Assembly (NCBI GenBank): GCA_964017195.1
Contig: OZ024890.1
Location: forward strand, 18,537,201-18,601,200
Reading direction: 5' to 3'
Source: Siderastrea radians
Lineage: Eukaryota; Cnidaria; Anthozoa; Scleractinia; Rhizangiidae
Length of the DNA stretch: 64,000 nucleotides
Under the pieces are notes generated by a model. It was not told where the DNA came from. It searched no databases and worked only from the letters and a program-made list of their open reading frames with translations. How positions within the stretch are numbered: the stretch's first letter is position 1; each line of letters starts with the position of its first letter. The position numbers and the translations under genes were made by a program. Shown piece by piece: positions 1,250-35,135 of this stretch.

Positions 1250-1261
1250 CTCGCCAGGTTA

Positions 1262-14768: not shown

Positions 14769-16577
14769 TCAAGCATCGCAACCATACACCTCTACTCTCA
14801 TGCATACGTAGGTGTACGTCACCGGATAAAATCTGACGTATCTAGCAGTGACGCCATGTTCTAATATGTTCACGACAGGTGTAAAGTGATCACAGTTGCC
14901 ACTGAAAACCTGAAAGTACAAAGAGGAGATAACTGAATTGAATAAATTGAACATTTAATAGCAGCTCACAATAGAAAAGACAGCCCAAGTTCAAAAATAG
15001 ACAAAAACCCCAAATTTCCAATCCCAATTATTTTAAGGCTCGCCACACTAAGGAATCGACACCTAGAATTATTTTACTTTAACCAAGACTTCTGTTCGAG
15101 GAGAGTTATCTATTGGAGCGAAAACCGTTTCATCCACGATAAAGCAAAGAGAGTTGACAACCAGGGCCCCATTCCCAAGTAGCTTTCATTTTGTCATGAC
15201 GTGGACGTGTAGCGTACAGACGGTAAAGCGTGCGTTGCATGTGTGGACCCCTAACATTGATGCGCGCAATATTTTACGCAGCTGAAGAAGAAGAAAAGCT
15301 AGTGTAGTACAATCAGGAGTGTTTCACTAGCGTGATTTGGGCCTGAAACATTGTGTGCACTGCCTAAGTTGCAGCGTGTGATTAACCTTTTGTACAATAC
15401 TGCGCACAATAATACAATAGTGTTCTACTTCTTTAACATTGCAAACAACAATTTAAAGGGTTGGCGCGCAGTATTGTACAGTGCGTCCGGGTTTTGTGGC
15501 GTGCTATACTATTTCCCACCTTGTGTTCTCCGTTCTTTTTGTAGTAGTTCCAAGTGGCTCCGTCCTGGCTGAAAGCAAGTTTGTACGATTTCACGTGCTC
15601 ATAGTACTTGTGTCGACCTAGAATTTGAACCAAAAAAGATTACTGCAACTTCTAAAGCTAATCGTTAGTAGCATTTAAGGGCAGGTTGATTTGGGGCATT
15701 CCGGCCCGTATACTTTTCGTCTTTTACCAGGCCGTTAATTTTATTTCCCACCATAATGCCGGTCGACTAAGGATCACGCTTCGCAGAAAATAGCGACCTC
15801 AAGTAACCAGGAAGTTGAAATCACGGAGTTCACCTTCGGTTACCTGAAGTCCTATGCTTTTCCTTTCGATGCGTTTTGATGTCATCACTGATTACGTCAA
15901 AAAAGTCCAATTCATCCTTGTTTATACAATTGTGGATAACAGAAACTTTCGGCTATACTGTTTCACGGACTAGGGATAACACAAAATCAATATTCGAAAC
16001 TATTTCGCAAAGGCCGAGGAGAAAAAACAGCCATTTCACATCACCCAACGAAACCAAACAGCATTTCAAGCGCTCTCAAACTGTCGATCTCGCAACGTTG
16101 AAAATTTTTTAGTGAAATAAATTTTTCGACAAAATTATTTGAATCTGCCACTGAAGTACAAGCGCATTTTCACCTACTCAAGGACTCACTGTTCAAATAA
16201 ATGAAGAAAAGAAATGAGACGAGAGAAATTAAATAAAATGTTAAAGATACCTTGAGTGCCGACCGCTGTTATGTATCTGTTCATTCCCAGGTCTACTTGT
16301 AGCCACTGGTTTCTAGGTGACGCTGCGCACCAGGCCCCAACTCGTTTAGTTTTGAAATCGTCAGTAAAATACATTCGCGCATTGCGAGCACCGCAATCCC
16401 ATCCTGCACCTGAAAAACAAAGGAATAAAAAGATTATAAACCAAATAATTTTTCACAGTTACACAGTCAAAACGTTCGTAGTAGCTTACTTACCAACGTT
16501 AAGCACCGAAGACGCAGAAAAAGCACTGTCTGGTAGGTTGAAATTCCATCCTATTCCAAGCGGAATAGAACAAGGAG
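14769..16577 (-). CDS. Second F5/8 type C (discoidin) domain and C terminus (exons 18-21)
   Basis: Residues 1003-1158: CSIPLGIGWNFNLPDSAFSAS, KRVGAWCAASPRNQWLQVDL, YITAVGTQG, SYKLAFSQDGATWNYY, VTARYVRFYPVTYTYVCMR, VEVYGCDA then stop. Exon phases mirror those of the first discoidin domain (Q-G split by a phase-1 intron after the GTQ/ATQ block), consistent with duplication of a multi-exon module. Confidence 0.92.
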
Positions 16578-19500
16578 CTACACGAAAAAAGATAAAACAA
16601 AGGTTCAGTGAACATGATACGATTTTAAGCAGTTAAGAAAAGATTTCCTTATACAATATGCCACCAAGGAAGATCCAAATAGCCCCCTTTTCATAAGGGA
16701 TAACTGAATGGAAGTAACGAACACGTTTATCTCAGTTACCGCTCCTCTTTCGGGTCGGTTCAGACTTGAGCCTAAAAGCTTATTTTCCCTGCCACTTCAC
16801 CCTCCAGCGTCACTCCTTGGTCAAGTACGGCGAGCGTGGATATCTGGTACTGCGACTAATGTCAATCGCAAAGGGGCCCGCAACTATGTTTTTCCGCTCT
16901 CTTCGTGCGAAATGAAATACGCTTGGGCAGCGAGCAAAGGAAATCACCAACACTCGAAAAATCGACGCAAGCCCGGAGCAGTTGCCGTTTAGCTTCTCAC
17001 TCGAGAGACTACTATTATAGATAATTACGCCTAGTTAAACTTACCCAGGGGTTTGACGGGATGTTTGTCGCATCGCTTGGACTTACAGCTCTTTTTGCAG
17101 TTTTCCTCCATCCAGCCTGGGTTAGCAGAGCACTGGCCTGCTTTGGCAAACTCTGGGCAACTTGGATGGCGGTCCTCGCACTTCATGCCTGTGCAAAACA
17201 AGAATGCAACAAAATAAAGATGTCAAGAAGACAACCTGCACATTTTATATTTTTGGTCTCTCTTTTTTTTTCTCTGAAAAAAAAAAAACCTTAAATAATT
17301 GAACAAGCCAATTGACCAACACTGTACACTGGAACTAAGTAGATCATCGTTTGTAAATTATCTTGGCGTGGAACATAAGCCTGCATTGCTGGCGCAAAAA
17401 GAATACGGGACAAGAATACGGGGGATTAGAGCACGAAGCACAACAAGGAGAGAACACGGAGAGCGATGGTGGAAAAGTACCGAGAGGGGAGGGGGGGAGG
17501 GCTCCCCTCCCCTCCCTCCACCGCGCATTGGCCTCTGTCCTCTTTCTTGGCACACAAATTCTCCCCTCCCCTCCGCCATTTTTTCTCCAACCACGTACGT
17601 TTAGCAGACCATCATGGGATATCGCTCAATATAGTAAACAGGTCCATGAAACGTGAGGTACAATTAACTTTACCTGTGGGTTTTTCTGGTGTTGTAATCG
17701 GTGGACGAGGCTTGGCTGTCAGTGGCGGTTTGACTGTGAGTGGCTTCGTCGTTGTAGACACTTGAGGACTAGTCGAGGGAACCTCCCTCGTTGTGGATGG
17801 CAGAGATGTTGTTGGCGGCGTCGCTGATTTCACTAGATAATAAAAGTGAAAAGCGATAATAATAACTTTAACTTTTAAAACACTAAAGAATTTAAGAAAG
17901 TCTGCAAACAAGCTTAGAGACCATTGTAGTAATTAAAAATAAGGACGGTGCTTCCTAATACAGATGTATTTTTGCATTTAGGTTATATGACTATGAGGAA
18001 AAAGTAGATCTTATCAAGGGTTATTGGAATCCAAAAAGAAAAATGTGGGTAACCGTGCATTTCTCAGACACAATTTAGCAACCATAATTCCAAAAAAGCG
18101 CCAAGATACAAATAATGTATGGCAATTGCTTTCCAAATTGAAGCGGCTCTTTTATCTCTTAAAAATGCGTGTTTACCCCCAATTTTCTTTTTGAATTCTG
18201 ATAACCCTTACTAAGATCTACTTTTTCCACATAGTCATAATCCGCGCAAAAATATTGTTTTATTAGGGGGCAAATTCCCGAGATGCGCAGAACGTAAGCG
18301 CAGTAACAAAAGGAGGCACTGTAACGCAGTAACAAAAGAAGAACCTTAACGTTTTACAAAAACGTTATGGTGCGTGCAGACGATGATAAAATGGTCTACG
18401 AGCATACTAGAGGCTCGATGAAGACTAGTCAGATAAAGAACGTGCACCACAGGTGAAGACCGTAAAGTGATACGAATTTCCAGTATAGTGTATTGGAGAT
18501 TATTTGCTGATCGACGAAGAATGGGCCGGTAAGGACGTATTATGTTAGCGGCTTAGAGGAATTGAAGAACTGAAATGAAAGTCTAAAATGCCGAGAGATT
18601 TTCGGTCTTCGGTCTTCCCTATTCATCCAGAAATTTTAGGCCCCATTCTCACTGATGCGTTTTCGTTTGAAAACTGATATCTTTTGATACGTTTGTTTGC
18701 CTGTTGTCCACACTAAATTGATCGAAAACAACGATAAAGACGAACACTTCCGTAAACAGACTCGAAAGTAGATGCATTTAAAAACGCATCGTGACCCCGA
18801 GGAGACGGGTAAAAACGCGTCCTTTTATAAGCAGAGTGATGCGTGGAAGACGAAAACGGATGTTTCCGGAAACGCAGACGTCATTGAGGACAAAAACAAT
18901 TAAATCTATGTATCCGTTTTTAAAAGGAGATGTATTAGAGTGTACAGATGAAAAAGATGGGAAAACGTTTGAGTGAACGAAAATATTTTTCTACGTTTGC
19001 GGGCAAATGCAAAAAAGACTTTTGAAAACGTATTTCGTGGACGGTGCCTTAGTCCACGTGCCGAATGAAACCAGCACATTTCCCGGGAAGCTGGGCCAAC
19101 CGATTCCACCCTGCTTGGAAATCTACTGAGCAAAAGTGGGAAAAGAAATAAACAGTTGTAGTAAAATTCAAAGGAACGGCAAATTTCGGTCAAACCATTT
19201 CGATTAATATATCGAAATATGAGGTCCACCTTCCGAGAGTTCGGAATTTTGTCTGCATGAAAAGTGGCTTAGTTCGGAGTATTCGATTTTTTTCAGTCCT
19301 TACCTTCACAGCCGTAAAACTCGGTCCTGAGACAGATGTCAGTCTTCCAGGCAGTTGGGTGAATGCGAACATATCTGGCAATTACAGGGGTGGCCAGTGG
19401 ATTCCTCTTTACTGAAGACATGTCATTGTTACCAACAAAAACCTGTTGAACCAATAGTAGACTCCTTATCAAGTGTCGCTGCTCAAGTTCCAGGATGCTT

Positions 19501-22500
19501 AACTGGCAGCATTGTTAGCGATAAACACAACATGTGCAACTAGCGTCGAAGCAGTTTTTCTCAGTCGCATAAAGGCTTGTTTTGAGCCTTTGCGAATAAC
19601 ACTAGCAACATTTTTTTTTCACAATCACACTCAGGCAATCCGAGGTCCATTTTGGTATTCTTTCGTTTCATGTTCAACTTTTTCAATTTGCTCTGTTTCT
19701 TTATTTCATTCCAAAAGTTTGTGGTCCTAGAATAAACTTCATCTTCGCGCAAAAAACTTTCTTCCTTTAAATAATATGTTATCCCTTGCAACCTTTTCAC
19801 GCTACTCATCACGTATCATCACATGTTAACTAACCACGTTTTACCTTCGGATACATTGTCCAAGACTTGCCGTCATCACTGTAGGATATCCCGTATTCTT
19901 TCACAAATTTCGCAAATTTGCTCACTCGACCTGATGACAGGATGCGAAAAGCAAAAATGAATTTCTTATTCATCAAAAAATATTGAATTTTTGCGGACAG
20001 AGCTTAACTTCACTTTTTTGCATGATGAAGCAGCCAGCCCGGTTGTTCGAAAGCCGGTTAACGCTAACATGGGATTAAAATTTAACCAGGGACCCTGTTT
20101 CTCTTATTTTAAAAACGGTTTCCACAGCAAATTCCAAGTGATCATTTGAAAGCAAATAAAAAGTCAAAATGTATACACTGGAATCCGTACTGTTTAGCTA
20201 TAAAATGGAATTAAAAGTTGATGCTAATCCTGGGTTAGCTTAACCCTGGGTGGAGTACTTTGCAGGGTTCTATATTCAACTTGCTAGCAAAGAGGGTTTT
20301 ATAGCGACTGATTGCTGAATTCACTCGATCCCAAAATCCATAACCTTGATGTACCCTTGACTGCTGGTATTCTCAGACAGAGCAGGTGGCCTGACAAGTA
20401 TCCTGAGTGAGTCTGGTACTAGGAATAAGTGCTGAGTAGAGTCATGTCGGATATGAGATCTCTGGCGACATGAATGCACGCCAAAATCGAGAAAGCTGGA
20501 AGAGAATGCCTTGACACCGCGTCCGAAGCAGTTAAATGTGCGACGCATGCACAGTGCCTACAGAGATCTTGTTACAGTTTTACAATTAAAGGGGCATGTC
20601 ACCAATTTTTAGCATTAATTTGAGAAGACAAAAGACAAGTTAGTAATCAGTGATGGAACCCAAAATAATGGTCTAGTTTTGGTTAAAACTACTCTGCTAG
20701 TGCACTTAAACTGTTAATAAATGCCTTTGGCCACGGACGGTCAGGATGAATACGGATTGCAACTTGAAAAAAATCGGGCCGCTTTTTTTCAAGTTTTCCC
20801 TTCTGTCTAACAAAAAGCATTATAGACTTTTTACATTTTATTCTCCTTTCAAGAATTCACTTCATTTCTTCTTGGAGTTCTCAGAAAACCATTTTGTAGA
20901 TAAGAAAATGTCACCAATGTGACAAAAATAACTATGGCATAGACCGTTTCACCTACAGACAAGTATGAAATCTATCTCATTAAACTTCAAATTCGGGGCC
21001 GTTTCCGAAAACTTGAGTTTTTACGTCGAGTATCCGTGCAAAAATGACTTCGTTCGCCAATGGTTTCGTCCGCTTGAGATGTGTCACTGTTTTTCTTGTA
21101 ATGGTTTTGTTTCAAACGTTACACCCGTAAACTGTGTACTAACAAGTTTCAAAGCACTTGAAACCCAAAACTTTATTGACTTTTTCCACTTGTCCCCTGT
21201 GTGGGTATTGTGCTTTCTTTGGCCTACTTTTTAACCCACCCCAATTTCCTAACTCGAGCACAAAGGTGTCCACTACAGGATGAATCCAAGGCAATTATTT
21301 ACGCTTTTTAACCGATTCGAAAAGAAGAAACAAAAATAGCTCTTCTAAGTACGCTAATTCTCACCTTGCGTTGCAATTCCGGTAATAATGGTTCTCTTCA
21401 AAAAATCAACTTGCAAGTATTCATCATTACTCGGTCGCCCCACGCACCAGGCTCCTACTCCAGTTTTGCCGACAGGAAGGTTGAGACGGGCCTGGTGCGG
21501 ACCGTGAAATCTGCCAGAAAGGTCATATTTATTAGGAGAGGCGCTTGTTATTAATGAGTGTGTTAGAGCGGTTTTCAATTGAGTGTCGAAAGTAATTCGT
21601 GTTTTGCTTTGGTTTTGCTTTACTTCGTTCTGTGATTGGTTAAAAAATCTCGCGCCACTTTCTCGACCAATCAGGAGTAAAACTCAAACCAATCAGTCGC
21701 GACTTGCTCGCGCTCGCACGTTTTTTCCCGCGCTTGACGCCAGTAACATGTACTTGCTTCGAGTTCTGATTGGTTCATTGGGTAATTTGTGTCTGTTGTG
21801 ATTGGCTGGGGTAATTACTTTGGTTTTGGTTTTACGACACTCATTTGAAAAGCGCTCTAATAAGATTGTGCATTAACTTTCATGAGTAAGATAACTTAAT
21901 TGACGTCTTGTGAGCACAACTTTCTGACAAAAACGTACCTGTTCCAACTGTTAGACGCTGTTATCTGGCTGTCCTTGATCGTAAAATCTTCCATTCCAAG
22001 AGCCTTTGATGTCAGACATCCTGGTAATGGAGTATTTGGTGGCGGAGGAGTCTGGGGAGGAGGTGGCGTATTTGGTGGGGGAGGGGTCTGGGGAGGAGGT
22101 GGCGTATTTGGTGGGGGAGGGGTGTGGGGGGGAGGTGGCGTATTTGGCGGGGGAGGCGTCTGGGGAGGAGGAGGTGTGTTTGGTGGAGGCGGAGTCTGTG
22201 GAAGAGGAGGAGTCTGAGGCTGGGGTGTCACTGGTTCTTGTCCAATGTATTTCCGGACCCAGGATTCAAATTCACTGACGCGTGCAAACACAGTGTATTC
22301 GTTACGACCGGCGCTGCAGGTGCGAGTTCCCCAGCTGACGACACCATGCAGTTCATATTTTCTTCCGCTCTGTTGACAAACGAAAGGACCTCCTGAATCA
22401 CCAAAGCAACCACTGACTGTACTCGTACCGCCAAAACCTCCACAGATCTAGGAAAAGAAGAAAACAAAAAGGATAACCGATGCACTCTTCGAGAATTTTG

Positions 22501-25500
22501 CAAGCGTGATCGATCACAGGGTTACAGATATACCCTGTAAACACACTTGACATCTTGCGTACACTACTACTTAGTATTACTGTCGCATAGATTCATACGC
22601 TAAAGAGATGATTCTAGCTGCAGCTCACATATATGCACCACTAATGTAATCAATATAAAACACAGCCCTACCATTTTACTGGTCACGGTACCCCAGTACC
22701 TCATGTGATTCTTGCACGTGTCTTGTTGTGCCACTGGAAGGCTAGCCTCTTGAAGAACTGAAGCTCCCGGACGATTGTAGCCAGTTCTACCCCACCCTTA
22801 AAAAGTAAATCTGTGTTAAGAAGGAAGGCAAGCATTATTTGGAATGAGCAGCAATTTAAAGTAATTTTGATCACAAACTTACCAGTTATTGAGCAGTATT
22901 TTCCAGCAGATACGCTTTGTCCTTGTTTCGGAAGGCAAACCAAAGCCACGGCCTTGTTTAGAATTGCTGGACGATCCAACTCCAAAAGAGCTTGAAAATG
23001 AAAGAAACGCATAAACTGTTTAAGCATAAGTGAGTAATTTTATGAACGTTTCAAGAACAGTTTGGTTATTTTGGCTTCCTGTAATTGTGCCAGTAGCAAT
23101 CTCGTGGCCAGAGCCCGCAGGTTTCTTACTTAGCGCAGGATCCTATGTATGGTTACCAGACTTTGGAGACAGACTCTGTGATAAGAGACTCTTAGATAAT
23201 CAAGAAAAATATTTTTTTTTGATTGGCTGCTCTTGAACTTTTGATATTGCTCGTAAAAACGAGCGGTCAATGAAAAAGTCATTTCTTTAGGATTACTCGA
23301 GAGTCTCGCCAGACTACTATCCGCTGACCGAAAAGCACGCTGACTCTGGGTACGAGACTTTGCAGAAGAAATGAGAATGCAAATGAAAGGAACAATGGCG
23401 GTAAATAATTTACAATAGTATCCCTTTAGAACCATTTTCTTTTGCATTTTTCACTGACATCAACTTTTTATAATTACATTTTTAATTTTCTTTTATTGAA
23501 ACCGAAACCCACCCCCTCTCCGGCCCCAGGTCCTTAACATTTATTTCTGGAGCGCCATTGAAGGAGCAAAAAGTCTCTGAAAATGAGGTTGTCTTGAAAT
23601 CTTTAAAAATAACTTGTAGGCATATACTTATCAGTAAACCATTCGCTGATCAAGGAGATCGTAGGGTATTTCTGTAATCAGAATAATGAACGGTTTTTAT
23701 ATTACTTACCCACATCATTATTGACCGTTGCGCGTTGATAATATGGATGCACAATTACTCTCTTCACCGAGAAAAACTGTTCACTGCCTTCACGCCTTCG
23801 AACATCGTGCTCCCCTAAAAAGAACATAGGATCATTTGAAATCCAAAGAAGAATTTACGATTTCTAAAATTTTTACTGATTGAAGTTCCTGAACACAAGG
23901 AAGGAAATTGAATCCATGAATTTTTAAGTGCGAAAATGTGACATCGTAGGGGTAAAAAAATGTTTTTTTAAGTGATATTGTGGCTTCTCAATATTTTGCA
24001 CTCTACCTTCCCCCTCCCTCGTTTTTACCCCGACGCCCTCCTTGTGAGCAAATCAAGATTTGTTTCGCCACTGAATGCTTGGTAGAAGTTAAAGTTCATT
24101 TATTTATGAACCTGTGGTTAATGCTAGTTGTTGCTGATTGAAGCAGAACTTTTTAGAGGTCTTTTATCAATTAAGTTATCCACCTAAAACAACAGCACAA
24201 CTTAAGACTTCTTTGGAAATATCTGCATTTTGCACGTACCTAAGGTAATTCGATAGCCTGGGTTATAGGAGCTTCCTCTAACACAGTGCGCAGCGGTGAG
24301 TACCCAGCGAGGTGCAACCAGAGAGCCCCCACATTTGTGAGCCCCGTGCAGTGTCATCCGAGCCTGCCATGGCCAACTGTTCTTGACAGCAGTCTTACCG
24401 TTAACAACACGTCCAGGGGAGCCATAATGCCTTACGCCACAGTTACCACCTGTAAATGGAGTGTCCGCAGAAAAGGGTCAATTAAATCGTCATTGTGTGT
24501 TCGCATGTCGACCAAATTCAAGTGTCCTCATCAAAGTTTAAATCAAACGGAGACAAGGGCTACGGTACGTACACTCAGTGCAACATGGTGAGCCGAAATA
24601 AACCATGTGTTTACTACAGAAGCTGTTTAGCGTTTGTTGCACACATGCAACATCAATCTGCGCGTGTTTCAGGTCAATTTCTAAATATCTGTTTATTCGT
24701 GTTTGAGTCAGACTAGCTAATTCCACCCAAGGCTACGCTTTCGAAATAAGGCTGTGGAGTTCCTCATCAACGAACTCCCAAGAAATTAAACCAACTACCC
24801 AGATTATTCATTTATTCGATTCAAACTGGCCATAAATTACTTAGAAACCCCGTTATTCTTCTACATTAACAATCCTTGGGAAACGATTAGAAACCGCTCT
24901 TACTTGAAATAGTTGGCTTTATTGTTATGGGCTTTTTTGTCGTGGACGTTGGTCGTTCTGTTGAGGGAGTACGTCTCACGGTCGGTGGCCTGGGTTTAAC
25001 TGTCGGAGGCCTCGGTTTGACTGTTGGTGGCCTAGGACACAGTCCACAGCTTTTCTTGCAGTACACCCTCATGTATCGTGGATTTGAGCGGCAATAGCCT
25101 AGTCTAGACCAGTAATTACACTGATTGCTCTGATCTCTGCAAACGGATCCACCTGACGAGGAAAGAAAACGCAAAGCGACGGTAAGAATGGAAGAAAGTC
25201 AATCCACAATCAATCTGTTTTTAATTTTGGAGTCTCGGCTATGAAGGCCCTGAAACTGTGTCCATTCAAACGAAGCTACTGAGCAGTAGTTTCCTATTAT
25301 GCTGTTTATCAACATATTTAAAAATAACGTGACTTAAATTAACGCGAATTGAAGGGAAAATTACTCCCCAATAAAGGAAATTAACGCAAAAGACGGGGTA
25401 AAGTTTCAAAATGAGGAAAATTAACGCGATTAGCACAAAGCAACGCCTTGTGGTCACAACTGGAACAAATTTATTTCTAACTGAATATAAAGATCATGAT

Positions 25501-28500
25501 CAAAACAGGTCTACAGGTGTGTGAGGCAATTTCTATACAGACAATGTGCGCTAAATTTTGCCTAAATGTAGGAAAGCTATTGTTTTGTGGATGTCAAGAA
25601 TGTCTGGACTGTATCCAGAATATGGGATTAAAATGATGGAAATTAAGGTCGCGGAAATTAACGCTCCACTTAATCAACAACGCGGAAATTAACGCTCACA
25701 GAAATTAAGGCGAATTTTTACAATTCGCGTTAAATTCATGGAGCGTTAATTTCCTATAATAAGGTATTACGCGAGAAGGATTCTAACGGTTTGAATCTGA
25801 GTTTGAGAGCCTGTTTAGGAATTGCAGCAGTGATTCTAACTTTTGTGTTTGTGGTTAAAAGCAGAAAGTGTCACTTTTCAAATGACACTGAGGAGTTGTT
25901 TAGGAGGTGCGTGGGGTCTTTTGCTATAACCTAAAGGATATGTCCATTGAAATGAAACTTCCTCACCTCCGGCTTAATTTCTTTCTTGTTTTCAAATGTA
26001 TCGTTCTCGTTTTAACCTGACATATTACGCGGGCTTATACTTTTTAATTGTTAAAGTAACATTTTCCCTGAATTCTTGGAGCGATTTTCAATTGAATGTC
26101 AGAAGTGATTTACGTTTGCTTTGCCTTTGCTTTACTCCGTGATGGGCTGAAAAACTCGCCCCATTTCCTTGGCAAGCTTTTTCCCGCGCATGACGCTAGT
26201 TACATGTATTTGTTCCCAAGTTCTGATTGGTTTATTGGGTTGTTTGCTTCTGTTGTGATTGGACTTACGACACTCAATTACAAACCGCTGACCTCACTTC
26301 ATTTCTTGAGTAGTACTTACATAATCCACAGCTTGCTTTACAGTATACGTGCATGTATCTCGGGTTACGCTGGCACTCTCTCCTTCCAGCCCAATCAGCA
26401 CAGTATCTGTTATAATCTCTGCAAGCTGTTAGCAACAAAAACACGGCCGGTTGCAAAGTTATCCAACATTGTTTGTAGGTATTAACTTGAAAATTTATCC
26501 TCGGGCATTGATACCGTATTAAGGCACTATACAGGAAACCAAAGTGTGCAAGCTCGCAAACTGGAAAACTTGGGAGGAAATAACAGAAAAAGGTGTGGAA
26601 AACGGCATTGTGTATTTGCTCCCCAACACAATTGCATTCCTGCAAATTTTTATACCTGAACTTACCGTGACATTGAACTGTTGTACATGTTCATACAAAC
26701 GTTGCATTGAGCGTTATGTTTGCACCAATAATTAGAAATGGCGGATGGAAATGACCAGCGAAACAACAAAATACGGTGGAACCTCGAATTAACGAAGTTC
26801 CAAGGGAATGAGGAAATTGGTTCGTTATATGAAGGTTCTTTTCCATGCATTACACTATCACTGGGCTGAAAAGTATCGTTCTTTATACCGAGGACTTCGT
26901 TCTAAAGAGGTTCGTTAAAGGAACTATGTCACGGTATTTTCATTCATTTTTTTGATCTGACAAAATTATTTTCTTATTGAAGGGAACCTCAAAATAATAG
27001 TTTTCTTATAAAGAAAAACACCAAAGAAGTGATAATGAACAAAAACTAAACAAGGATGGTTACGACTGAGGGAGATTAAGACGGACTTCGAATAACAAAC
27101 TTGAAAAAACTTGCCAATTTTTCAAGATGCGTTATCCGTGACGTAGCTCCTTTAAATCGAGGTTCCACTGTAGAAATGTGTTAAAATTAACACCTATACG
27201 ATGGAACCTGTACAAGTGCTGACAACTTATTCAAGCGATTTTAGCTATTTCATGTGGATTAATGGCCAATTAGACTAAAGAAACCACTAATGACTAGGGT
27301 AATTGGCGGAGATATTTGTGAAATGTATTTGCCGCCAAAATACGAATCTTAAGGAAGGGCAGCTTGAGCACAGCTGCCCACCCTCCTTAATATTTTTCTT
27401 GGGGAGAGGCAGGCTAAAGAAATGAATTTATTTACCAGTCTGTCTTCGTTTCCTTCTGAAAGGATCAGTTGAGCTGCATCCGTACATCTTGTTAGTCTGT
27501 TCAGCGTCCAGATTACTCAAAGCCTGGTATGGTTTCTTTCCATTCAAAGGCTGCAGAGCTCGTAAAGTTGGCTGGCCGTTTTTCGAGAACGCGTTGAACG
27601 GATAATGCATAATGGATCCATAGTCGTACGGCAAGCCGAGTGAGTCGATTTTATCTCTACCATACTTAGCGAACGCGCTTTCGTAACCTAGAACAAAACG
27701 GGAACGAAGAAATTACTTTACGATTGTAGGTTCAAAGTTCATTGAGCAATGGGCTTAATTTTACTCGAAAGTTAAACATTTGGGGTATTGAAATATATTG
27801 GTGTTATGCTTAAATGCAATTTTCGAGATGAATATTGTAGAAGCTGGTAGAATTTAATTAGTCGTTTTCTTTTGTTCCTGAACTTACAAAGCGATATGAA
27901 AAAGTAATAGTCCCTGATCGTACTAAATTGACGGAAAAGAAAAACGCCCCCTGCTATCAGAGGCTTGCCAACGAAGTGATGGGAAAACTGGCCGAGTAAA
28001 AACTTGCGACGAGGTGGAAGAGGACAACTACGCCCGCACATTTCAAAACGTTAACGTTCTCTCTGATACATGAAGGAAGGGGGCTTTTTTCAGTTTCGTG
28101 TTATCATGAACAAATAACTTACCAGGTAGTATGTTCTGCTTTTGCACCTGAACGTAACTATCTCTGTCTGGTCGACTTTGTTCATGCCAGAACCCAACAG
28201 CATGCCCAATCTCATGCACCATCACATGCTTGTACTCACAGCCAAACCCGACAGACAGGGACGTTTTGCCGCCAATACGGCCAACGTTACACCAACACCT
28301 AAAACATTACATAGTAAAGGTAAAGGCAAAGTTGCACACGAGCCAAGGACGCATACACGGCCGGAGCTTATCCCGGTTTCTGTAGCATGAAGTTACTGAG
28401 AGTATTGCTACTCCCTCCTGGATGGGATGCTAGTCCATCGCAGGGTTACACCCAGCAGTATGTCACCGGTACCCATTTATACACCTGGGTGGAGAAAGAC

Positions 28501-31500
28501 AATGTGGGGTAAAGTTTCTTGTCTGAGGAAACAACACGATGGCAGCAGGGACTGGGCCTCGACGCACCAACCTTCAGATCTGAAGTTCCAACGCGCAAAC
28601 CACTACACCACCCCTCCCCCACATACGTCATCAAAAGTCTTCTGCACAACTTCAAACGACATGAGCCGTTGTGGTTATGCTAAATTGTAACTGAGCTTAC
28701 CTCTCGCGCTATGGACTGACTCAAAGTGATCAAACTAATTTACAATTGCCTTTATTCTAGAGAAATACAGTTAAAAAGGTTTATAACACCTTACGGCTCA
28801 TCAATGGCCCCTTCGCTGGTTCGAGACTTCTCCTTTGCATCAACTGGATTTGTATCTCGGCAGTTCCAATTTTATCCGGGTTTAAACTTTAAGCCCCTAT
28901 TGTGATCAGCATCAGATTTCTCCTCATGATATCAGTGCATTATGACACATCTAAGTCATGGGAATTAAGGAAATGGTCACCAAAGATGAATTGAGTCACT
29001 GTTTCGACAAGTTCTCCCAACTAGTCCTCAATAAAATACATAGATACCAATAAGGAGAATTTGCATAATAACGCTGGGCCTATTGGCCATGATGGAAATG
29101 AACGCATGAAGACTAACTTACGTCGACTTGCTTCGGCTGGCCAAATTTTGGAAACCCTGTGCCGCACTGAATTGCATACGAAATTGCGCTGTATTGGAGA
29201 GAACGAAACCGAGAACTGAAGTCGCAGTCAATACAAGTGCAGTGGCCAAAACGAGTCGCACTTCATCCGTTTAAGTGTCCTTGACTATTGTTTCAGCACA
29301 TAAATACTGAATACATCGATGCTTAATTACATTGTTTCTATTTGTTACTAACCCCTTTTGTCTGAAGAACCACAAGTAATCTTTCTCAGATGTTCTCTTC
29401 ACGAATTTTATGCACGTTTTGCTTTCCCATTCTCTCATGGCTGACGCAATGGCATTCAACGCCTCGGGCATGTTCTCTGCAAATATGTTAGAAAAAATAT
29501 TCATTGATTTCACTACGTTACTATTTCTCCTTTATAACACAACTTTAGAGCATCGAAAACGATTCGCGTCTGCGTTGATTACTACACCGTCCCATCAAGA
29601 CTCGCGCCATTTTGTCAACCAGTTATCAGTAATTTATAAACTCACAGTTAACACGACTAAATGATCGAATACACGTCCAATTATCAAGAAACAAAGTAAA
29701 AGCGATATAAATTTCTAGTAAAAACTAATTATCGCGCATCAAAAACCCGATTAAGAACAAAACTAATGATAAAATCTAAAGACTACTGACAAGCTTTCAT
29801 ATGACGTTTTCAACCCATTATTGGAATCTAGACAGCGCAACGCACCTCCCCTGGAAGAGAGTTCTATGGCTAGGACGTAGCAACAGCACACACCCTTTCA
29901 CTAAGTGTTGTCTTAGCTCTCACCGGAGTGACGCTGAAGGGTAAACTGCTAGATGATCCAAGATTATACGATGAAGACTTGATACTAATTAACTGACTAG
30001 ATACTCTAAAGCTTGGCCATGAAGCGCTTCTAAGAAATTAATAAAACCTTATAATTATCGTGTCGTGCTTGCACGCACTTTACCTCGCTTGACACCGTCT
30101 ACATCTATTGGCTTTGAATTCTGATTGGTTCATTAGTTTGTTTGTGTCTAGAGGATTAGTCGGTGTGATTAGTTTGATTCTATTTTATGACACTCAACTG
30201 GAAAACGCTCTAATAAGAAACCGCATTTACTTACTCAAACTGCAGTCGATCTCGTACGGTATGATCGCATTCGGCCACCGAAGACGATTGTCCCCTCCTG
30301 CCGCTCGACTGGCGTTGCCTCTGACGTCACCATAAATATCGATATTCATGAGCTGTTCTTCAGTTAAATTGATATCTCCTTCAAACACGTTATCTGGCAG
30401 GGGTGGACTGGAAAAATCTGCAAAGTAAAAGAGGTTTTTCATTCGCGCTCAAATGCAATAAATACACTAATAGAGCACAAAATCCACATAAATGTTTAAA
30501 TGCATTCTACTACTAACCGTGAGGATTATTCGGAACTAAACTATCGATTTTCACACAGTTGGGTTACAATCGTGTCATTTGCCGAATTGATATTAGTGAC
30601 GGAAAACCGTCTTGAACGGGAAAGTCATCTTCAGACCAGGGCAAGGAAAAAAAACTCCTTGCGATTTTCGCGTCTAACATGAATTTTAAGACAGTTTTCC
30701 GTCTAAGACGAGTTTTCCGTCCAATTTTGCTATCGGTTTAGACCGAAAAATAGACGGAATTCCGTCTGTGACGAGTTTCCGTCTTCTAATATGAATTAAT
30801 CGTGGGGAAAATAGAAACCAGTAGACGTGGGCATGGCGCGCGCACTTATCATAGCGCTTAATGACGTCCTTCTGTTTTTGTATTACTGACAACAAAAGTG
30901 GATGATTATGACATGTCTGTTTGCGCGCGCAAAAAAAAAAGAACAGAAAAAAGGCAGACACGATTCAAGGCTATTGAGAGGCAAAAGAAATATTCATATT
31001 CTCGACGAAGGTAAAAACTACTGGTAGTCGAAACACTTTGATTGTTATGGAAGAAGGAGTGAACAAAGTTCAAGAGTTGTTAGGGCAACTTAAAGAACAT
31101 ATTGGAGAACTCATTCCTTCATTTGAGGAAACTGTGGAGCAACAGGCAGAAAAGTTAGCAAGTAAGCAGAGGAAAGAGCTGCGAAAGAAACTTAAGACTG
31201 AACAAGACGACGCCAATAACGAATGTAAAAAGATAAGACTTGAAACTGAGGAGATCATCAGAGACATTGGCAGAGTAACAAGAAAGGAAGCACAAGATAT
31301 CAGAAGCAAACATGGCGCAAACCTGAAGGCTATTGCACACAAAGAGAAGCTTATTAAGAACAGTGAAGAACTTGAAAATATCGCTCCAGAAACTACAAAT
31401 CATGATACTATGGTTGAAGTAAGTTATTTTAGTGAAATCCAACCCATGGAAGTATCTGAAAACCTGGTCTCGCATTCCTCCGTCTCGCCACAGTGCGCCA

Positions 31501-33583
31501 CTTGTGGAAAAGAAAGTGTTTGGTTATATTTCTGCTCAGCTTGCAAAGATACAAGATATTGTGACGAAAGTTGCCAAACAAAAGACTGGAAAAAGCATAA
31601 GCAGACTTGCAGTCGATTATCCCACAACTAGTTTAGCTGCAGGAATATTTTTTTAAATTATAGTAATCAACGACCCTTGTTAAAATTAAATTCACATTTT
31701 TTTCTCAGTGTACCGTATGCTTTATGTTTCCTTCCGGTCTTCCGACAAATCGATTTTTCTCTATTCCGATTTGCATAAATTGCAACTTGTTTCTTTAGCG
31801 GTTGTGGCATTCTTTGTATATAGTCCTCGTTGACTCAACAAATAAATTTTAAGACGCGTTTTTGTGATTTAATTCTGAAACGAAGGCCCCAGAAAAATTC
31901 CGCTTGCAATTAAACGGTACAATTGATCGAAAATGACGTTTTTGGTGGTAAACTGGAGTTTCAAAAACTCCGTTTCGTAAACACAAGTTGCCATCACAAA
32001 AACAGTTTGCAAACATGTCGGCAAACTATTGTCGAGCAATAAAACTGGCTTTATTTTTGCGAACACTTTCAACAATCTTATTCTGCTCGAAACACGCATT
32101 TGACGAGTCGATGTTTCTGAGGCTGGCGACGTAACAGAGGGCATCCGCAAGTTCGATGCGCGCGCTGGTGACACAACCATTTTTCAAAAGGTCAGTCGCA
32201 CGCATCAACTGGAACAGCACTAAACAATACGTTTAACAAGCAAAACAACAACTCTGCACATATGTTACACATTTCGGTACCTTTCTTAGTTTTGCCGTCC
32301 TCTGGAACTGAAAACAACAACGCGAAATGACCAAATTTTTAGTTACATGGAGAAAAGTGCCTTTTCTTTGTCAGCTTGTAAGCCGTCCCTACCAGTTCAG
32401 TTTCTGAATAATTCGGTCACATCGATTGTACAAGTTGAACAATTAAAGTCGGAATAATCGCTAAGTAGATCAAGTGAATAAACAATATAGCCAAAAAGCC
32501 AGCTCCTTTCTGAATTGGACTTTCAAGTACCCAGTGAAAGCTGTCTTTTCCACCACTTTTCTTTTTTTTCACCACTCGTCCGCCATTTTTTGAACAGCAA
32601 GCGTTCCGTCACTTCGCTGCTTGTCTCTGATCGGTTAACTTAAAATTTGTCACAATTTCATCCCTTGCAATGACACACGAATTGTATTGCACACATCAAA
32701 CTTCAGTCAACGACTTCTGCGCGTGTAATTTTTATTTTAATGCAGAAGTAGTATATCTACAACGTCATCCAGCATCTCCCATGTGGTCTAGTGGTTAGGA
32801 TTCGGCGCTCTCACCGCCGCGGCCCGGGTTCGATTCCCGGCGTGGGAAGTAGATGTTTTTATTCTTTTCTTTGTTTTTGTCTTTTTACTCCTTCTCGACC
32901 TCATTCTTTTATGACCTTTCTTTCTTCATTGAATTTCGCGTTTGATGTTTAGATTAATTGACTTATTTAGACAGTTAGGGGCTAATGCTTTTTGGTCTAT
33001 ACTTTTCGATTGCGCAGATTATAACGCGGTGCGTTTCGTAAGATCGATTGCCAAATCAAATTCGAGGCTAGCTGTCAGAAAACCAGCTCAACTTCACTAG
33101 CGCCCTTGAGTTGGCTTCTTAAAAGCTATCGTGGGATTATTAGATTGGCACGAACTGAGTATGCCAATTTTAATGGTACGGACTGCAAAACAGTGGCTTT
33201 TTTACGCGGACACTCGTGAGGCGCAAAGCGCCGAAAACGCGAACTGTCGCGCACGATTCTCGCACGCCCGTAGGTCCCCAGTCTCATTCAAGACCGCCTT
33301 TTGTTCTTAGACCGCGCGCTGTTCGTACACCGGATCTCGGATCAACTCACGCAAAGATACGGAAAGTATTGCAGTCTATGGTCACACTCTCGATACAAAG
33401 CGAGTGACATCCTAAGGCGATAAACAGAAACTTACAATCACGCTCTATCTCCATGTTCGCTTGAAGAATCTGGTCAAAAGCTGCCTTGGAATCTGGGTTG
33501 GGAATGCTGGGTGATGCCGTAGTCAGCCCGGAAAGACTGGTAACCAAGGACAGGAGAAGGGTTGTCCACAGCTGGACAGGCAT
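14769..33583 (-). CDS. Secreted mosaic astacin/ShK/serine protease/discoidin protein (21 exons, 1160 aa)
   Basis: Exons, 5' to 3' on the minus strand: 33583-33436, 30417-30235, 29476-29353, 28298-28123, 27687-27436, 26425-26321, 25152-24904, 24449-24240, 23814-23710, 22990-22883, 22796-22672, 22447-21939, 21543-21365, 19930-19845, 19442-19304, 17832-17674, 17188-17045, 16577-16494, 16409-16251, 15617-15520, 14909-14769. All 20 junctions have GT/AG borders and matching phase, most of them phase 1, and the total is 3483 nt. Residues 1-23 are a signal peptide (MPVQLWTTLLLSLVTSLSG). Domain order: pro-region, astacin, ShK, ShK, linker, S1 protease, Pro-rich linker, F5/8C, linker, ShK, F5/8C. Extracellular location is expected. 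No stop codon or polyadenylation signal in coding context separates the two protease units, but symmetric phase-1 exons mean two genes or alternative forms cannot be excluded without transcripts. I recognise no named orthologue with this architecture. Confidence 0.85.
17045..17832 (-). CDS. Thr/Pro linker and third ShK domain of the mosaic gene (exons 16-17)
   Basis: Residues 900-952 are a Ser/Thr/Pro stalk (TTSLPSTTREVPSTSPQ, TKPLTVKPPLTAKPRPP). Residues 956-992 form the third ShKT domain with six cysteines (C956, C963, C972, C983, C987, C992) and the family signature NPGWMEENCKKSC. A basic tail (DKHPVKPL) leads into the second discoidin domain. Confidence 0.9.
17941..18322. mobile_element. 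Second copy of the ~390-bp TTAA-type MITE, reversed
   Basis: GGACGGTGCTTCCTAATAC at the left and CAGTAACAAAAGGAGGCACT at the right correspond, reversed, to the two ends of the element at 6415-6809. Interior blocks (AAAGTAGATCTTATCAAGGG, CCCGAGATGCGCAGAACG) also match. Flanks are decayed. It lies in intron 15 of the mosaic gene. Confidence 0.65.
18640..19050. repeat. Possible inverted-repeat element in intron 15 of the mosaic gene
   Basis: GGCCCCATTCTCACTGATGC...TTTTC at the left resembles the complement of the right end (GAAAACG...GTGGACGGTGCC). Homology is imperfect and no target duplication is clear. No coding content seen in the intron. Confidence 0.35.
19304..21543 (-). CDS. First F5/8 type C (discoidin) domain, main part (exons 13-15)
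   Basis: Together with the end of exon 12, these exons give residues 739-898: GVGAWCVGRPSNDEYLQVDF, TIITGIATQG, FVKEYGISYSDDGKSW, ATPVIARYVRIHPTAW, LRTEFYGCE. These are the standard discoidin blocks, with bounding cysteines C739 and C898. Such domains bind glycans, lipids or collagen; the ligand here is unknown. The exon 13 acceptor (AACAAG|C at 21544) lacks a good pyrimidine tract and lies only 19 bases from an inverted-repeat element at 21563. Confidence 0.9.
21563..21860. mobile_element. 298-bp inverted-repeat element, copy 1 (intron 12 of mosaic gene)
   Basis: TTAGAGCGGTTTTCAATTGA at 21563 pairs with TCATTTGAAAAGCGCTCTAA ending at 21860. The interior has repeated CCAAT/ATTGG boxes (TGATTGGTT, ACCAATCAG) and GC-rich blocks. 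Two relatives lie at 26076 and 30058 in the same gene. Confidence 0.75.
21939..24449 (-). CDS. Chymotrypsin-fold serine protease module plus Pro-rich linker (exons 8-12)
   Basis: Residues 413-664. Activation cleavage would fall at GR426|VVNG. The triad is complete: H467 (LTAAHC), D516 (NNDVALL), S613 (GDSGGP). The residue at chymotrypsin position 189 is S607 (VSGCFGDSGG) and 216 is Gly, so the pocket predicts chymotrypsin-like rather than Arg/Lys specificity. The domain is followed at 665-737 by about nine TPPPP[NQH] hexapeptides, encoded by a 36-base DNA repeat (22031-22210), which separate it from the first discoidin domain. The final 28 codons of exon 12 already begin that discoidin domain (C739, SKALGMEDFTIKDSQITAS). 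Confidence 0.93.
24904..26425 (-). CDS. Paired ShK domains plus Thr/Pro linker of the mosaic gene (exons 6-7)
   Basis: Two six-cysteine ShKT domains lie back to back at residues 296-330 (CRDYNRYCADWA...YCKASCGLC) and 334-368 (CRDQSNQCNYWS...YCKKSCGLC). The splice junction falls inside the last Cys codon of the first, so T|GT joins the exons exactly; this ties the exons together. The following linker (369-412) repeats PRPPTVK three times, then turns Ser/Thr-rich, likely O-glycosylated. ShK domains are common in cnidarian secreted proteases. Here they are structural modules; no channel-blocking activity is implied. Confidence 0.92.
25285..25770. repeat. Repeat zone built from GGAAATTAACGC motifs
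   Basis: GGAAATTAACGC or one-base variants occur near 25375, 25416, 25655 and 25683, and inverted near 25741 (AGCGTTAATTTCC). Edges TTTCCTATTATG and TTTCCTATAATAAGG resemble each other. Probably a decayed MITE in intron 6 of the mosaic gene. No gene seen. Confidence 0.45.
26076..26291. mobile_element. Inverted-repeat element, copy 2 (intron 6 of mosaic gene)
   Basis: GAGCGATTTTCAATTGAATG at the left and ACACTCAATTACAAACCGCT at the right match the copy 1 ends. The interior TTCTGATTGGTTTATTGGGT and CCCGCGCATGACGC also match. Internally deleted relative to copy 1. The right end is about 30 bases from the exon 6 donor. Confidence 0.7.
26774..27170. mobile_element. 397-bp pogo/Tigger-type MITE with TA duplication
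   Basis: Ends CGGTGGAACCTCGAATTAA and TTTAAATCGAGGTTCCACTG form inverted repeats flanked by TA (26772-26773, 27171-27172). CAGTGGAACCTCGATT is the terminal type known for pogo-like mariner elements. It lies in intron 5 of the mosaic gene, with no transposase. Confidence 0.75.
27436..30417 (-). CDS. Astacin metalloprotease module of the mosaic gene (exons 2-5)
   Basis: Residues about 50-294 of the 1160-aa protein. The pro-region carries FEGDI (61-65), the aspartate-switch motif that blocks the zinc in astacin zymogens, then SR87|AAGG, a plausible tryptic activation site. The catalytic domain has RLRWPNAIIPY (94-104), TCIKFVKRTSEKDY, GRIGGKTSLSVG and the full zinc site H180-E-x-x-H184-x-x-G-F-x-H190-E191. 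The Met-turn is SIMHY (235-239), with Y239 the fifth ligand. C108 and C281 fit the long disulfide. C155 (GCWCNVGR) is an extra cysteine. The module ends in FRRKRRQT (287-294), a proprotein-convertase-like site. All catalytic residues are intact. Confidence 0.92.
28400..28640 (+). repeat. SINE-like dispersed repeat
   Basis: The block GGATGCTAGTCCATCGCAGG followed by CCCATTTATACACCTGGGTG and GACAATGTGGGGTAAAG recurs near 46385-46510, and its first part occurs inverted near 38050. A multi-copy retroposed repeat in intron 3 of the mosaic gene; the open frame 28427-28690 is not a gene. Confidence 0.6.
30058..30213. mobile_element. Inverted-repeat element, copy 3, left end missing (intron 2 of mosaic gene)
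   Basis: TTCTGATTGGTTCATTAG and ATGACACTCAACTGGAAAAC...GCTCTAATAAG match the right half of copy 1. No left inverted repeat is found. The right end is about 22 bases from the exon 2 donor. Confidence 0.65.
31038..31631 (+). CDS. MYND zinc-finger protein with N-terminal coiled coil (intronless)
   Basis: A 197-codon uninterrupted gene lies inside intron 1 of the mosaic protease gene on the opposite strand. Residues 10-115 are Glu/Lys/Gln-rich with heptad-like hydrophobic spacing (QELLGQLKEHIGELIPSFEE), predicting a coiled coil. Residues 153-191 form a complete MYND finger: C153, C156, C166, C169, C175, C179, H187, C191 (ending YCDESCQTKDWKKHKQTC). MYND fingers bind proline-rich peptides; partner and function here are unknown. 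A second Met at codon 4 is an alternative start. Lack of introns and nesting suggest a retrocopy, though the frame is intact. AATAAA follows at 31841. Confidence 0.85.
   Translation: MIVMEEGVNKVQELLGQLKEHIGELIPSFEETVEQQAEKLASKQRKELRKKLKTEQDDANNECKKIRLETEEIIRDIGRVTRKEAQDIRSKHGANLKAIAHKEKLIKNSEELENIAPETTNHDTMVEVSYFSEIQPMEVSENLVSHSSVSPQCATCGKESVWLYFCSACKDTRYCDESCQTKDWKKHKQTCSRLSHN
31841..31846 (+). terminator. Polyadenylation signal AATAAA (MYND gene)
   Basis: Exact AATAAA about 210 bases after the MYND stop codon. Confidence 0.6.
32026..32315 (-). CDS. Possible small two-exon coding fragment, unidentified
   Basis: On the minus strand, TTTTCAG|TTCCAGAGG...AAGAAAG|GTACC gives a short exon (VPEDGKTKK). 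After a TTTAG acceptor, a second exon reads VLFQLMRATDLLKNGCVTSARIELAD...FIARQ then stop (32026). The two join in phase 1, which also matches the mosaic gene's first exon, so an alternative 3' end of that gene is conceivable. An ATGGCGGACGAG start near 32586 does not join in frame. I do not recognise the protein. Confidence 0.3.
32777..32848 (+). tRNA. tRNA-Glu (anticodon CTC)
   Basis: All arms fold: acceptor TCCCATG/CGTGGGA with one G-T pair and discriminator A, D arm with A box TGGTCTAGTGG, anticodon stem CGGCG/CGCCG with loop CTCTCAC (CTC at 32810-32812), and T arm CCGGG-TTCGATT-CCCGG. It matches the conserved animal tRNA-Glu(CTC). A T5 terminator follows at about 32855. It sits in intron 1 of the mosaic gene. 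Confidence 0.95.
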
Positions 33584-33849: not shown

Positions 33850-35135
33850 GGGCGTTAACAAAACCCGGAACATGGAACATTCCGGAACATCCCGGAATAT
33901 TCCGGAACATTCTGGAACATCCCGGAACAGGGCAAATTATCACAAAAGAAATGAAAAAAAAGAGTGAAAGAAAGATTTCAAGAGAAAGCGATTAAAGAAA
34001 CAATCAAAAAACAAACGAACAAACAAACAAACAAACAAAATTTAAAGTAAGGTGTAACAGTAGTACTTTCCCGCCAATTTTATCATGAGATTTTCTACCG
34101 TGTTGGTTTCTTGCCTTATTCTTGGCCTCCCCATGAAATTAAAAAAAAATTGATTAAGCCACATAGTAACCAGTGAGAGTTACCAGATCTGTGACAAAGA
34201 TCTGGATTTGCAGAAAAACTGAACAAAAGTAAAACTACATCAAATTAACTCATCATTACGGCGGAGAAAAGACAAAGGCAAGAATTTATAAAAATAATAA
34301 ATAAACTAAAAAACTGATATAATTTTTGTGTCGGATATTTCAGTTTGAAACACAAACCTTCACCGAAAGCGGTGCTTTTTTTCAGTTGCAGCGTAAGAAA
34401 GGGAGGGAAATTTGTTATCTTAGAAGGTGCGATCCCCAAGTGTAGAACAGCTGACTTTTGGAACGAACAGAAGAGATTGTGTAGACGAACAAAGAGAATA
34501 ATTAGGAGCTGGTTTGACAAAAGGTATTTAATGTAGGGTGGACTCCTTTTTTTTGGTTAGTATAATTTACGTTCATTCATCTCTGCACACTTTTACTTTG
34601 GAAATCAACTTAAACACAAAACGTCCTTAAACAACCGAATAAACATGAGACCAGGAAACTCAAAAGCGTACCAGGAAAGTGGAACTGCGTGACTGCATGC
34701 GTAGTCTCCTATGCAGCCGTTCTTAGTGTCGTCATGCGACGCCAAAGGAGACTACTGCATGCGTGACTGAGAAAATGCTTTAATTTTCTCATATCAAGTA
34801 AACCGTCTCTCGATACCCAAAATAAAGCCTCAATGTTATCCGAGATATTTTTGAATTCAAGAAATGAGACGCATTTAGCCAGAGTTAGCATATTCGTTCA
34901 TTTAGTCACAGATTTATCCATTTATTCTATATCGTTTATTTTATTTTATTTCATTTTATTCTATTTTACTTTATTTATTATCTTTTATCGAGGATCAGAA
35001 TTTTTTTATTACCTTTTTTTTCATTTATTTTGTGATAATTTGCCCTGTTCCGGGATGTTCCGGAATGTTCCGGAATGTTCCGGGATGTTCCGGGATGTTC
35101 CGGAATGTTCCATGTTCCGGGTTTTGTTAACGCCC
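33850..35135. mobile_element. 1286-bp Mutator-like non-autonomous element, 9-bp target duplication
   Basis: Inverted repeats of about 110-120 bases begin GGGCGTTAACAAAACCCGGA and consist largely of tandem near-palindromes GGAACATTCC/GGAACATCCC. Flanks TGTTACAAT (33841-33849) and TGTTATAAT (35136-35144) form a 9-bp duplication with one mismatch, typical of Mutator-like elements. The interior is AT-rich without transposase and holds a nested 53-bp foldback element. Reading frames across the ends (CSGMFRNVPE repeats) are translations of the repeat. Confidence 0.8.
34702..34754. mobile_element. 53-bp foldback element nested in the Mutator-like element
   Basis: TAGTCTCCT at the left and AGGAGACTA at the right, with CTGCATGCG duplicated on both sides (34693-34701, 34755-34763). 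Same family as the 89-bp element at 41608-41696. Confidence 0.75.

What the first reader, a model, noticed from the sequence alone, without database searches (positions are those of the whole stretch)
14769..33583. One predicted chain with two complete, unrelated protease active sites
The sequence shows a zinc metalloprotease (HEIGHAVGFWHE with Met-turn SIMHY) and a chymotrypsin-fold serine protease (H467, D516, S613) joined through two ShK domains. A tail of discoidin, ShK and discoidin follows. All 20 hand-traced splice junctions keep phase, including one that splits the last Cys codon of the first ShK. Astacin-ShK and trypsin-ShK proteins are known separately in cnidarians. I know of no described protein with both enzymes plus paired discoidin domains.
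Basis: partly seen in the sequence, partly recalled or inferred. Interest (0 to 1): 0.88.

Follow-up and report, generated by a model that had tools for sequence, protein, structure and literature searches.

The report
Anthozoan gene encoding two different proteases
A gene in a coral-like animal appears to code for one secreted protein holding a metal-dependent protease and a serine protease; such pairings are already known in several animals, but this one seems to have been put together separately and carries a possible cut site that could release the two enzymes from each other.

Summary
The sequence observation holds. A 22-exon model on the minus strand (33583-14769) gives an unbroken 1158-aa chain: signal-like start, astacin prodomain, astacin, ShK, ShK, chymotrypsin-type S1 protease, Pro-rich repeat, F5/8C, ShK, F5/8C. 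The novelty claim does not: 19 of 344 listed relatives carry astacin plus S1, 12 of them with ShK between, and a 2019 paper places the trypsin-astacin association at the origin of Cnidaria. One of the 19, an Actinostola gene model, also has F5/8C. What is distinctive is history and probable processing. The outer domains (astacin, last F5/8C) belong to an old astacin-ShK-F5/8C family reaching amphioxus; the S1-F5/8C middle is a phase 1-1 exon cassette between them. AU tests reject grouping with the coral astacin-ShK-trypsin genes, one of which lies in the same genome. A furin-type RKRR site follows the astacin; such motifs recur in 7 of 15 family rows against 0 of 24 controls, so the mature product may be two enzymes, not one. 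No RNA or protein evidence was available.

The parts
33436..33583 (-). Exon 1: start codon, signal-like N-terminus, start of prodomain
   Evidence: hydropathy 2.02 in a simple scan
32281..32307 (-). Exon 2, 27 nt, doubtful micro-exon (phase 1-1)
   Evidence: no counterpart seen by eye in P0001
30235..30417 (-). Exon 3: prodomain FEGD motif (30374-30385), putative maturation site R96|A97 (R at 30305-30307), start of astacin
   Evidence: roles of the motifs from knowledge of astacins
29353..29476 (-). Exon 4: astacin
28123..28298 (-). Exon 5: astacin, zinc site HEIGHAVGFWHE at 28181-28216
27436..27687 (-). Exon 6: astacin C-half, Met-turn SIMHY 27602-27616, furin-type RKRR 27443-27454
26321..26425 (-). 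Exon 7: ShK domain 1; last Cys codon split with exon 8
24904..25152 (-). Exon 8: ShK domain 2 and Thr/Pro linker
24240..24449 (-). Exon 9: S1 protease start, putative activation site R435|V436 (R at 24409-24411), His476 at 24286-24288
23710..23814 (-). Exon 10: S1 protease, Asp525 at 23714-23716
22883..22990 (-). Exon 11: S1 protease
22672..22796 (-). Exon 12: S1 protease
21939..22447 (-). Exon 13: S1 C-terminus with Ser622 (22394-22396), Pro-rich linker (36-bp tandem repeat 22028-22207), start of F5/8C domain 1; joins serine protease and F5/8C in one exon
21365..21510 (-). Exon 14: F5/8C domain 1
19845..19930 (-). Exon 15: F5/8C domain 1
19304..19442 (-). Exon 16: end of F5/8C domain 1; end of the phase 1-1 cassette (exons 9-16, 1428 nt)
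17674..17832 (-). Exon 17: Thr/Pro linker
17045..17188 (-). Exon 18: ShK domain 3
14769..16577 (-). Exons 19-22 (16494-16577, 16251-16409, 15520-15617, 14769-14909): F5/8C domain 2 and stop

Best explanation
A single gene of an anthozoan (probably a stony coral; species not identified) encodes a secreted double zymogen. It descends from an old astacin-ShK-F5/8C gene into which a phase 1-1 exon cassette (chymotrypsin-type S1 domain, Pro-rich linker, F5/8C) was inserted ahead of the last ShK, before the lineages of the window's animal and of the anemone Actinostola parted. Proposed working: (1) the chain is secreted with the astacin held latent by the FEGD prodomain; (2) a furin-like convertase cuts RKRR301|Q302 and frees the astacin from the ShK-S1-F5/8C part; (3) tryptic cleavage at R96|A97 activates the astacin and at R435|V436 the serine protease; (4) the serine protease stays tethered to its ShK pair by a C425-C545 disulfide and to the F5/8C-ShK-F5/8C tail by the peptide chain, which would anchor it to glycans, collagen or other matrix; (5) its pocket (S189, G190, G216, T226) predicts hydrophobic rather than Arg/Lys specificity, so it is not expected to activate itself or the astacin, and co-synthesis gives a 1:1 dose of two complementary proteases, most likely for extracellular digestion or matrix remodelling. 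Shown here: splice model in frame, domains, domain ancestry, cassette symmetry, motif recurrence. Inferred: transcription as one unit, secretion, every cleavage, disulfides, substrate class, role.
For: Intact 22-exon frame and domains. The window's astacin lies in the AST-ShK-F5/8C clade (15 rows, 99/96) and F5/8C-2 in the matching clade (15 rows, 96/97). S1 pairs with Actinostola P0001 (100/98), and F5/8C-1 groups with P0001 and Stylophora P0002 (95/87). Cassette exons 9-16 = 1428 nt, phase 1-1; in a trypsin-less paralogue on C14 the likely splice sites after ShK2 and before ShK3, picked by eye from the candidates, are also phase 1. Three loci in the same genome show astacin, ShK and F5/8C exons without S1 matches in the stretches fetched, one tail-to-tail about 24 kb away. 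RX[KR]R between astacin and next domain in 7 of 15 AST+F5/8C rows including the window, 1 of 18 AST+TRY rows, 0 of 24 AST+ShK controls. Ten S1 cysteines at the places of the five chymotrypsin disulfides; pocket residues read from the alignment to chymotrypsinogen and the same in P0001 and P0015 by sequence. No signal-like ATG between exons 6 and 9. Among the listed own-genome S1 matches (150 of 422 candidates scored) none outside this locus exceeds 61% identity.
Against: No transcript or protein evidence. The furin motif is absent from P0004, P0009, P0016, P0267 and all four amphioxus rows, the rows that have it are related and so not independent, and its use is untested. P1 of the S1 activation site is His in Actinostola (GH|VVDG), so tryptic activation is not conserved there. 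Stylophora P0002 has F5/8C-1 but no S1 domain. Actinostola P0001 lacks the astacin C-half and ShK pair ahead of its trypsin, and the full astacin that I put in the tree belongs to its second unit, which has no trypsin in the model. P0267 (astacin plus two F5/8C) falls outside the family in both trees. A cysteine without a known partner (C117) could tie the astacin to another part even after cleavage.
Confidence: 0.55

Rival explanations
1. The chain stays whole: a permanently joined two-headed protease, in which the ShK pair and F5/8C tail position both active sites on one substrate surface.
For: Other animals have astacin-S1 chains whose linker after the astacin lacks a furin motif (17 of 18 rows), so joined dual proteases are plausible products in general. 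Total cysteines even (44), with C117 and C164 of the astacin unassigned.
Against: The window gene itself has an RRKRR run just after the astacin; such motifs recur in related genes and are absent in 24 of 24 astacin-ShK controls.
Confidence: 0.25
2. The locus mainly makes separate isoforms: astacin-ShK1 alone by read-through of the exon 7 donor, and/or a cassette-skipped astacin-ShK-F5/8C form; the double chain is minor.
For: Read-through of exon 7 completes ShK1 and ends at a stop after a short tail, with AATAAA at 26236; skipping exons 8-16, 9-16, 8-17 or 9-17 keeps frame. Stylophora P0002 is annotated without the S1 domain.
Against: AATAAA occurs in 12 other introns of this gene as well (13 of 21 in all), so this one is not special; completion of the T|GT codon is automatic at any such donor. 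P0002 lacks other exons too, so it is likely an incomplete model.
Confidence: 0.13
3. Two genes misjoined by hand splicing: an astacin-ShK gene followed by a serine protease-discoidin gene.
For: No RNA. Exon 8 onwards could be a separate unit in principle.
Against: The first and last domains belong to one gene family, the middle is nested between them, no signal-like ATG precedes the S1 exons, and the order is the same in the Actinostola model.
Confidence: 0.05
4. Assembly or gene-order artefact that brought unrelated exons together.
For: None found.
Against: The whole stretch lies inside one 71.5-Mb contig, the frame is intact throughout, and an anemone annotation gives the same domain order.
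Confidence: 0.02

Closest known systems
Actinostola sp. cb2023 hypothetical protein QZH41_012870 (P0001)
   Same: Astacin, S1, Pro-rich linker, F5/8C, linker, ShK, F5/8C in the same order; 62% identity over S1, 52% F5/8C-1, 66% over part of F5/8C-2, 73% over the first astacin part.
   Different: Annotated without the astacin C-half and ShK pair before the trypsin, and followed by a second astacin unit; P1 of the S1 activation site is His.
Stylophora pistillata zinc metalloproteinase nas-15 (P0002)
   Same: Astacin, furin-type site, ShK, both F5/8C domains; 74-87% identity by domain, 52% over the second ShK.
   Different: No S1 domain in the model; prodomain, ShK1 and part of F5/8C-2 also missing.
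Astacin-ShK-F5/8C proteins without trypsin (Nematostella LOC5519420, Montipora, Oculina, Porites, Pachycerianthus, amphioxus 'TLL')
   Same: Nearest relatives of the outer domains.
   Different: No S1 domain; one F5/8C by my profile; two to nine ShK by a crude pattern.
Astacin-ShK-trypsin proteins of corals (Oculina G002411, Pocillopora, Montipora and Acropora nas-15-like), with similar chains in Hydractinia, Owenia, Styela and a Ciona 'plasminogen'
   Same: Two protease domains with ShK between.
   Different: No F5/8C; no furin-type site in the linker after the astacin; the coral ones belong to other astacin and S1 clades (AU tests).
Trypsin-Astacin association of Babonis et al. 2019
   Same: Published category of proteins with both domains in Cnidaria (PMC6767649).

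Membership tests
Astacin family (M12A) | HExxHxxGxxHE zinc site and SxMHY Met-turn | tested here: met
   HEIGHAVGFWHE 189-200, SIMHY 244-248; Pfam Astacin E 2.7e-61; best solved match BMP1 1.2e-41
Astacin family (M12A) | Prodomain with FxGD aspartate switch | tested here: met
   FEGD 70-73; meaning of the motif recalled
Astacin family (M12A) | Signal peptide | tested here: inconclusive
   Hydropathy 2.02 in a simple scan; no dedicated predictor available
Peptidase family S1A | His-Asp-Ser triad, GDSGGP, five chymotrypsin disulfide positions | tested here: met
   H476, D525, S622; ten cysteines 425-648; pairing inferred from chymotrypsin
Trypsin in the strict sense | Asp at position 189 (Arg/Lys specificity) | tested here: not met
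   Residue 189 is Ser, 226 Thr by alignment to chymotrypsinogen: chymotrypsin/elastase-like
Coral astacin-ShK-trypsin lineage | Astacin and S1 domains share ancestry with P0019, P0237-P0240 | tested here: not met
   AU p 7.2e-114 and 2.4e-4 (astacin), 2.0e-4 (S1); groups were named after the first trees were seen
Astacin-ShK-F5/8C family | Astacin and C-terminal F5/8C group with the family | tested here: met
   99/96 and 96/97 clades
Furin-processed precursor | RX[KR]R in a linker, and cleavage there | tested here: inconclusive
   Motif present and commoner than in controls; cleavage not testable here
Dual-protease chain | Both active sites in one mature molecule | not testable with these tools
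   No RNA or protein data

The most novel reading that the evidence does not exclude
Two-protease precursors were assembled repeatedly by exon shuffling in animals, and the one in hexacorals is a 'split' design: a single gene delivers a freed astacin and a matrix-tethered, hydrophobic-specific serine protease in fixed ratio, cut apart by a convertase at a kind of site also found in trypsin-less relatives, with in-frame cassette skipping able to switch the serine protease on or off.
Probability: 0.25. Interest if true: 0.55.

Novelty: new variant of a known kind. Interest (0 to 1): 0.37.

Why it matters
Chains with an astacin and an S1 protease also turn up in an annelid and two tunicates, which the passages I saw of the 2019 account do not mention. 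On one astacin tree the dual state needs 9 changes, at least 3 forced by well-supported branches, although gain cannot be told from loss. That makes a test case for repeated exon shuffling. The window gene adds a before-and-after pair: a relative without matches to the serine protease stands about 24 kb away in the same genome.

Tried and rejected
Two-gene reading: rejected because the outer domains share one family and no signal-like ATG precedes the S1 exons. Common origin with the coral astacin-ShK-trypsin genes: rejected by AU tests. Activation by the serine protease of itself or of the astacin: set aside because both activation sites have Arg at P1 and the S1 pocket is not tryptic. The promoter scan uses bacterial patterns and says nothing for an animal gene. 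The first splice model was out of frame at exons 7 and 10 and was corrected. One search found no neighbouring loci because I named the files wrongly, so it saw the window alone; one search stopped on a file-format error. A GFP search meant to hint at the species did not complete. Papers: PMC6767649 passages and section 10; PMC9848320, PMC1867822 and PMC12549020 passages only, the last two adding nothing on two-protease chains; all others as search listings.

Full report
Observation. The final model has 22 exons, 33583 to 14769, every intron GT-AG, and one open frame of 1158 residues. The first attempt failed at two of 21 junctions; the exon 7 acceptor and exon 10 donor were then chosen to keep frame and homology. 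Pfam finds astacin, three ShK, trypsin and two F5/8C domains with very strong scores. Both active sites are complete.

Is it one gene. There is no RNA here, so this is inference, but from several sides. Exon 13 encodes the serine protease C-terminus, the Pro-rich linker and the start of F5/8C-1 in one open stretch. The astacin sits in a clade of astacin-ShK-F5/8C proteins (15 rows, 99/96), and so does the last F5/8C (15 rows, 96/97), so the two ends of the model come from one ancestral gene with the serine protease nested between them. On the minus strand between exon 6 and exon 9 no ATG is followed by a signal-like stretch, against 65 on the whole 64-kb strand by the same rule. The Actinostola protein P0001 has the same order apart from missing exons. 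The stretch lies inside a 71.5-Mb contig.

Origin. The cassette of exons 9-16 (S1, Pro-rich linker, F5/8C-1) is 1428 nt and phase 1-1, the usual form of shuffled extracellular modules (established knowledge). In the trypsin-less paralogue on C14 the likely donor after ShK2 and acceptor before ShK3, picked by eye from the candidates, are also phase 1. The genome of the window (805 Mb; window = C4:18537201-18601200) holds loci with astacin, ShK and F5/8C exons and no S1 match in the stretches fetched on C14, C3 and, tail-to-tail about 24 kb away, C4. It also holds an astacin-ShK-ShK-trypsin arrangement on C3 at 49.14-49.15 Mb, 77-93% identical to Oculina P0019 by exon, and astacin and trypsin exons on one strand on C1, nearest to Desmophyllum P0244 and Oculina P0132, whose gene boundaries I did not work out. 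The S1 domain of the window groups with Actinostola (100/98) and then Dendronephthya P0015 (100/97), and among the listed own-genome S1 matches (150 of 422 candidates scored) none outside this locus exceeds 61% identity. Holding the window's astacin, or its S1 domain, together with the coral astacin-ShK-trypsin group (P0019, P0237-P0240) is rejected: p 7.2e-114 with P0001 and P0002 included and 2.4e-4 with the window alone for astacin, 2.0e-4 for S1. The groups were named after the first trees had been seen, which weakens these p-values.

Choice of rows. Astacin tree: 57 rows, being 17 of the 20 dual proteins including the window (P0132, P0243 and P0244 dropped for partial astacins), the 14 astacin+F5/8C proteins and 26 other astacins picked by hand. 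The P0001 row is the full astacin of its second unit, which has no trypsin in the model. S1 trees: 81 rows; 65 rows after I left out P0122, P0131, P0196, P0251, P0270, P0272, P0319, P0327 and P0330, most of them long branches. F5/8C tree: 50 rows; P0267 falls outside the family there and in the astacin tree.

How unusual are two proteases in one chain. Three protein searches listed 120 best rows each, 344 different proteins in all; further hits (256, 353 and 251 in total per search) were not listed and not examined, and only proteins of 0.55 to 1.75 times the query length were candidates. Of the 344, 19 have both astacin and S1 by my own profiles, 12 of these with ShK between them by a crude pattern; one of the 19 also has F5/8C; 14 have astacin and F5/8C without S1. 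The 19 are from Actinostola, Oculina (2), Pocillopora (2), Montipora, Acropora, Desmophyllum, Paramuricea, Hydractinia (2), Owenia (2), Styela, Ciona and four entries without an organism name. On the astacin tree (17 dual of 56 labelled rows, P0002 left out as uncertain) the dual state needs 9 changes, at least 3 forced by well-supported branches; gain cannot be told from loss. Babonis et al. 2019 place the trypsin-Astacin association at the origin of Cnidaria (PMC6767649, section 10). A 2023 review mentions trypsin-like domains in helminth astacins (PMC9848320, passages).

Working. The astacin has an FEGD prodomain motif and a putative maturation site R96|A97 that makes the conserved Trp the tenth residue of the mature chain, as in crayfish astacin (numbering recalled). 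The S1 domain has R435|V436 and ten cysteines at the places of the five chymotrypsin disulfides, including the pair that would hold the propeptide side to the enzyme after activation. Its pocket reads S189, G190, G216, T226 against chymotrypsinogen, the same in P0001 and P0015, so it should cut after hydrophobic residues and not activate itself. In Actinostola P1 of the activation site is His, against the tryptic activation step. Just after the astacin stands RRKRR. An RX[KR]R motif between astacin and the next domain occurs in 7 of 15 astacin+F5/8C rows including the window, in 1 of 18 astacin+S1 rows (P0242, inside a long unrelated linker) and in 0 of 24 astacin+ShK controls, some of which have long linkers because the ShK pattern is crude. 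P0243 and the partial first astacin of P0001 were dropped because the astacin end was missing. The motif is absent from the four amphioxus rows and from P0004, P0009, P0016 and P0267, and the rows that have it are relatives of each other. If used, it frees the astacin from the rest, and the striking feature of the finding exists only in the precursor.

Limits. No transcript, no protein, no species name; taxon labels such as coral, anemone or annelid are recalled from the organism names. The Stylophora and Actinostola models are visibly incomplete. Read-through of exon 7 would also give a finished astacin-ShK1 protein, and several cassette skips keep frame. Substrate, tissue and role are inferred.

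Verdict. A well-formed predicted gene, a new variant of a known kind.

Noticed in passing
window 30978-31631 (+): Open frame of 217 aa with a C-terminal MYND zinc finger, antisense inside intron 2 of the protease gene (zf-MYND E 2e-10); possibly a retrocopy.
   Followed up: partly
window 32777-32848 (+): tRNA-Glu (CTC) antisense inside intron 1 of the protease gene.
   Followed up: no
window 50-1258 (-): Open frame with a TauD-family dioxygenase domain, resembling gamma-butyrobetaine/trimethyllysine dioxygenase (recalled).
   Followed up: no
window 53529-56993 (-): BEN-domain (53529-54047) and DUF7869 (55977-56993) open frames near each other; may be a mobile element (inference).
   Followed up: no
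window 33874-33929 and 35046-35111: Two arrays of a 10-bp GGAACATTCC-type unit, both upstream of the protease gene's start codon.
   Followed up: no
window 22028-22207: The Pro-rich linker is a 36-bp coding tandem repeat, 5 copies, so its length may vary between individuals.
   Followed up: no
L015-L020 (own genome C1:20.066-20.126 Mb): Astacin and trypsin exons on the same strand, repeated along 60 kb, nearest to Desmophyllum P0244 and Oculina P0132: perhaps a third kind of two-protease gene in this genome; gene boundaries not worked out.
   Followed up: partly
P0272 (Ciona): A Ciona protein named 'plasminogen' by its source has an astacin, four ShK and a trypsin domain; the name looks misleading.
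   Followed up: no
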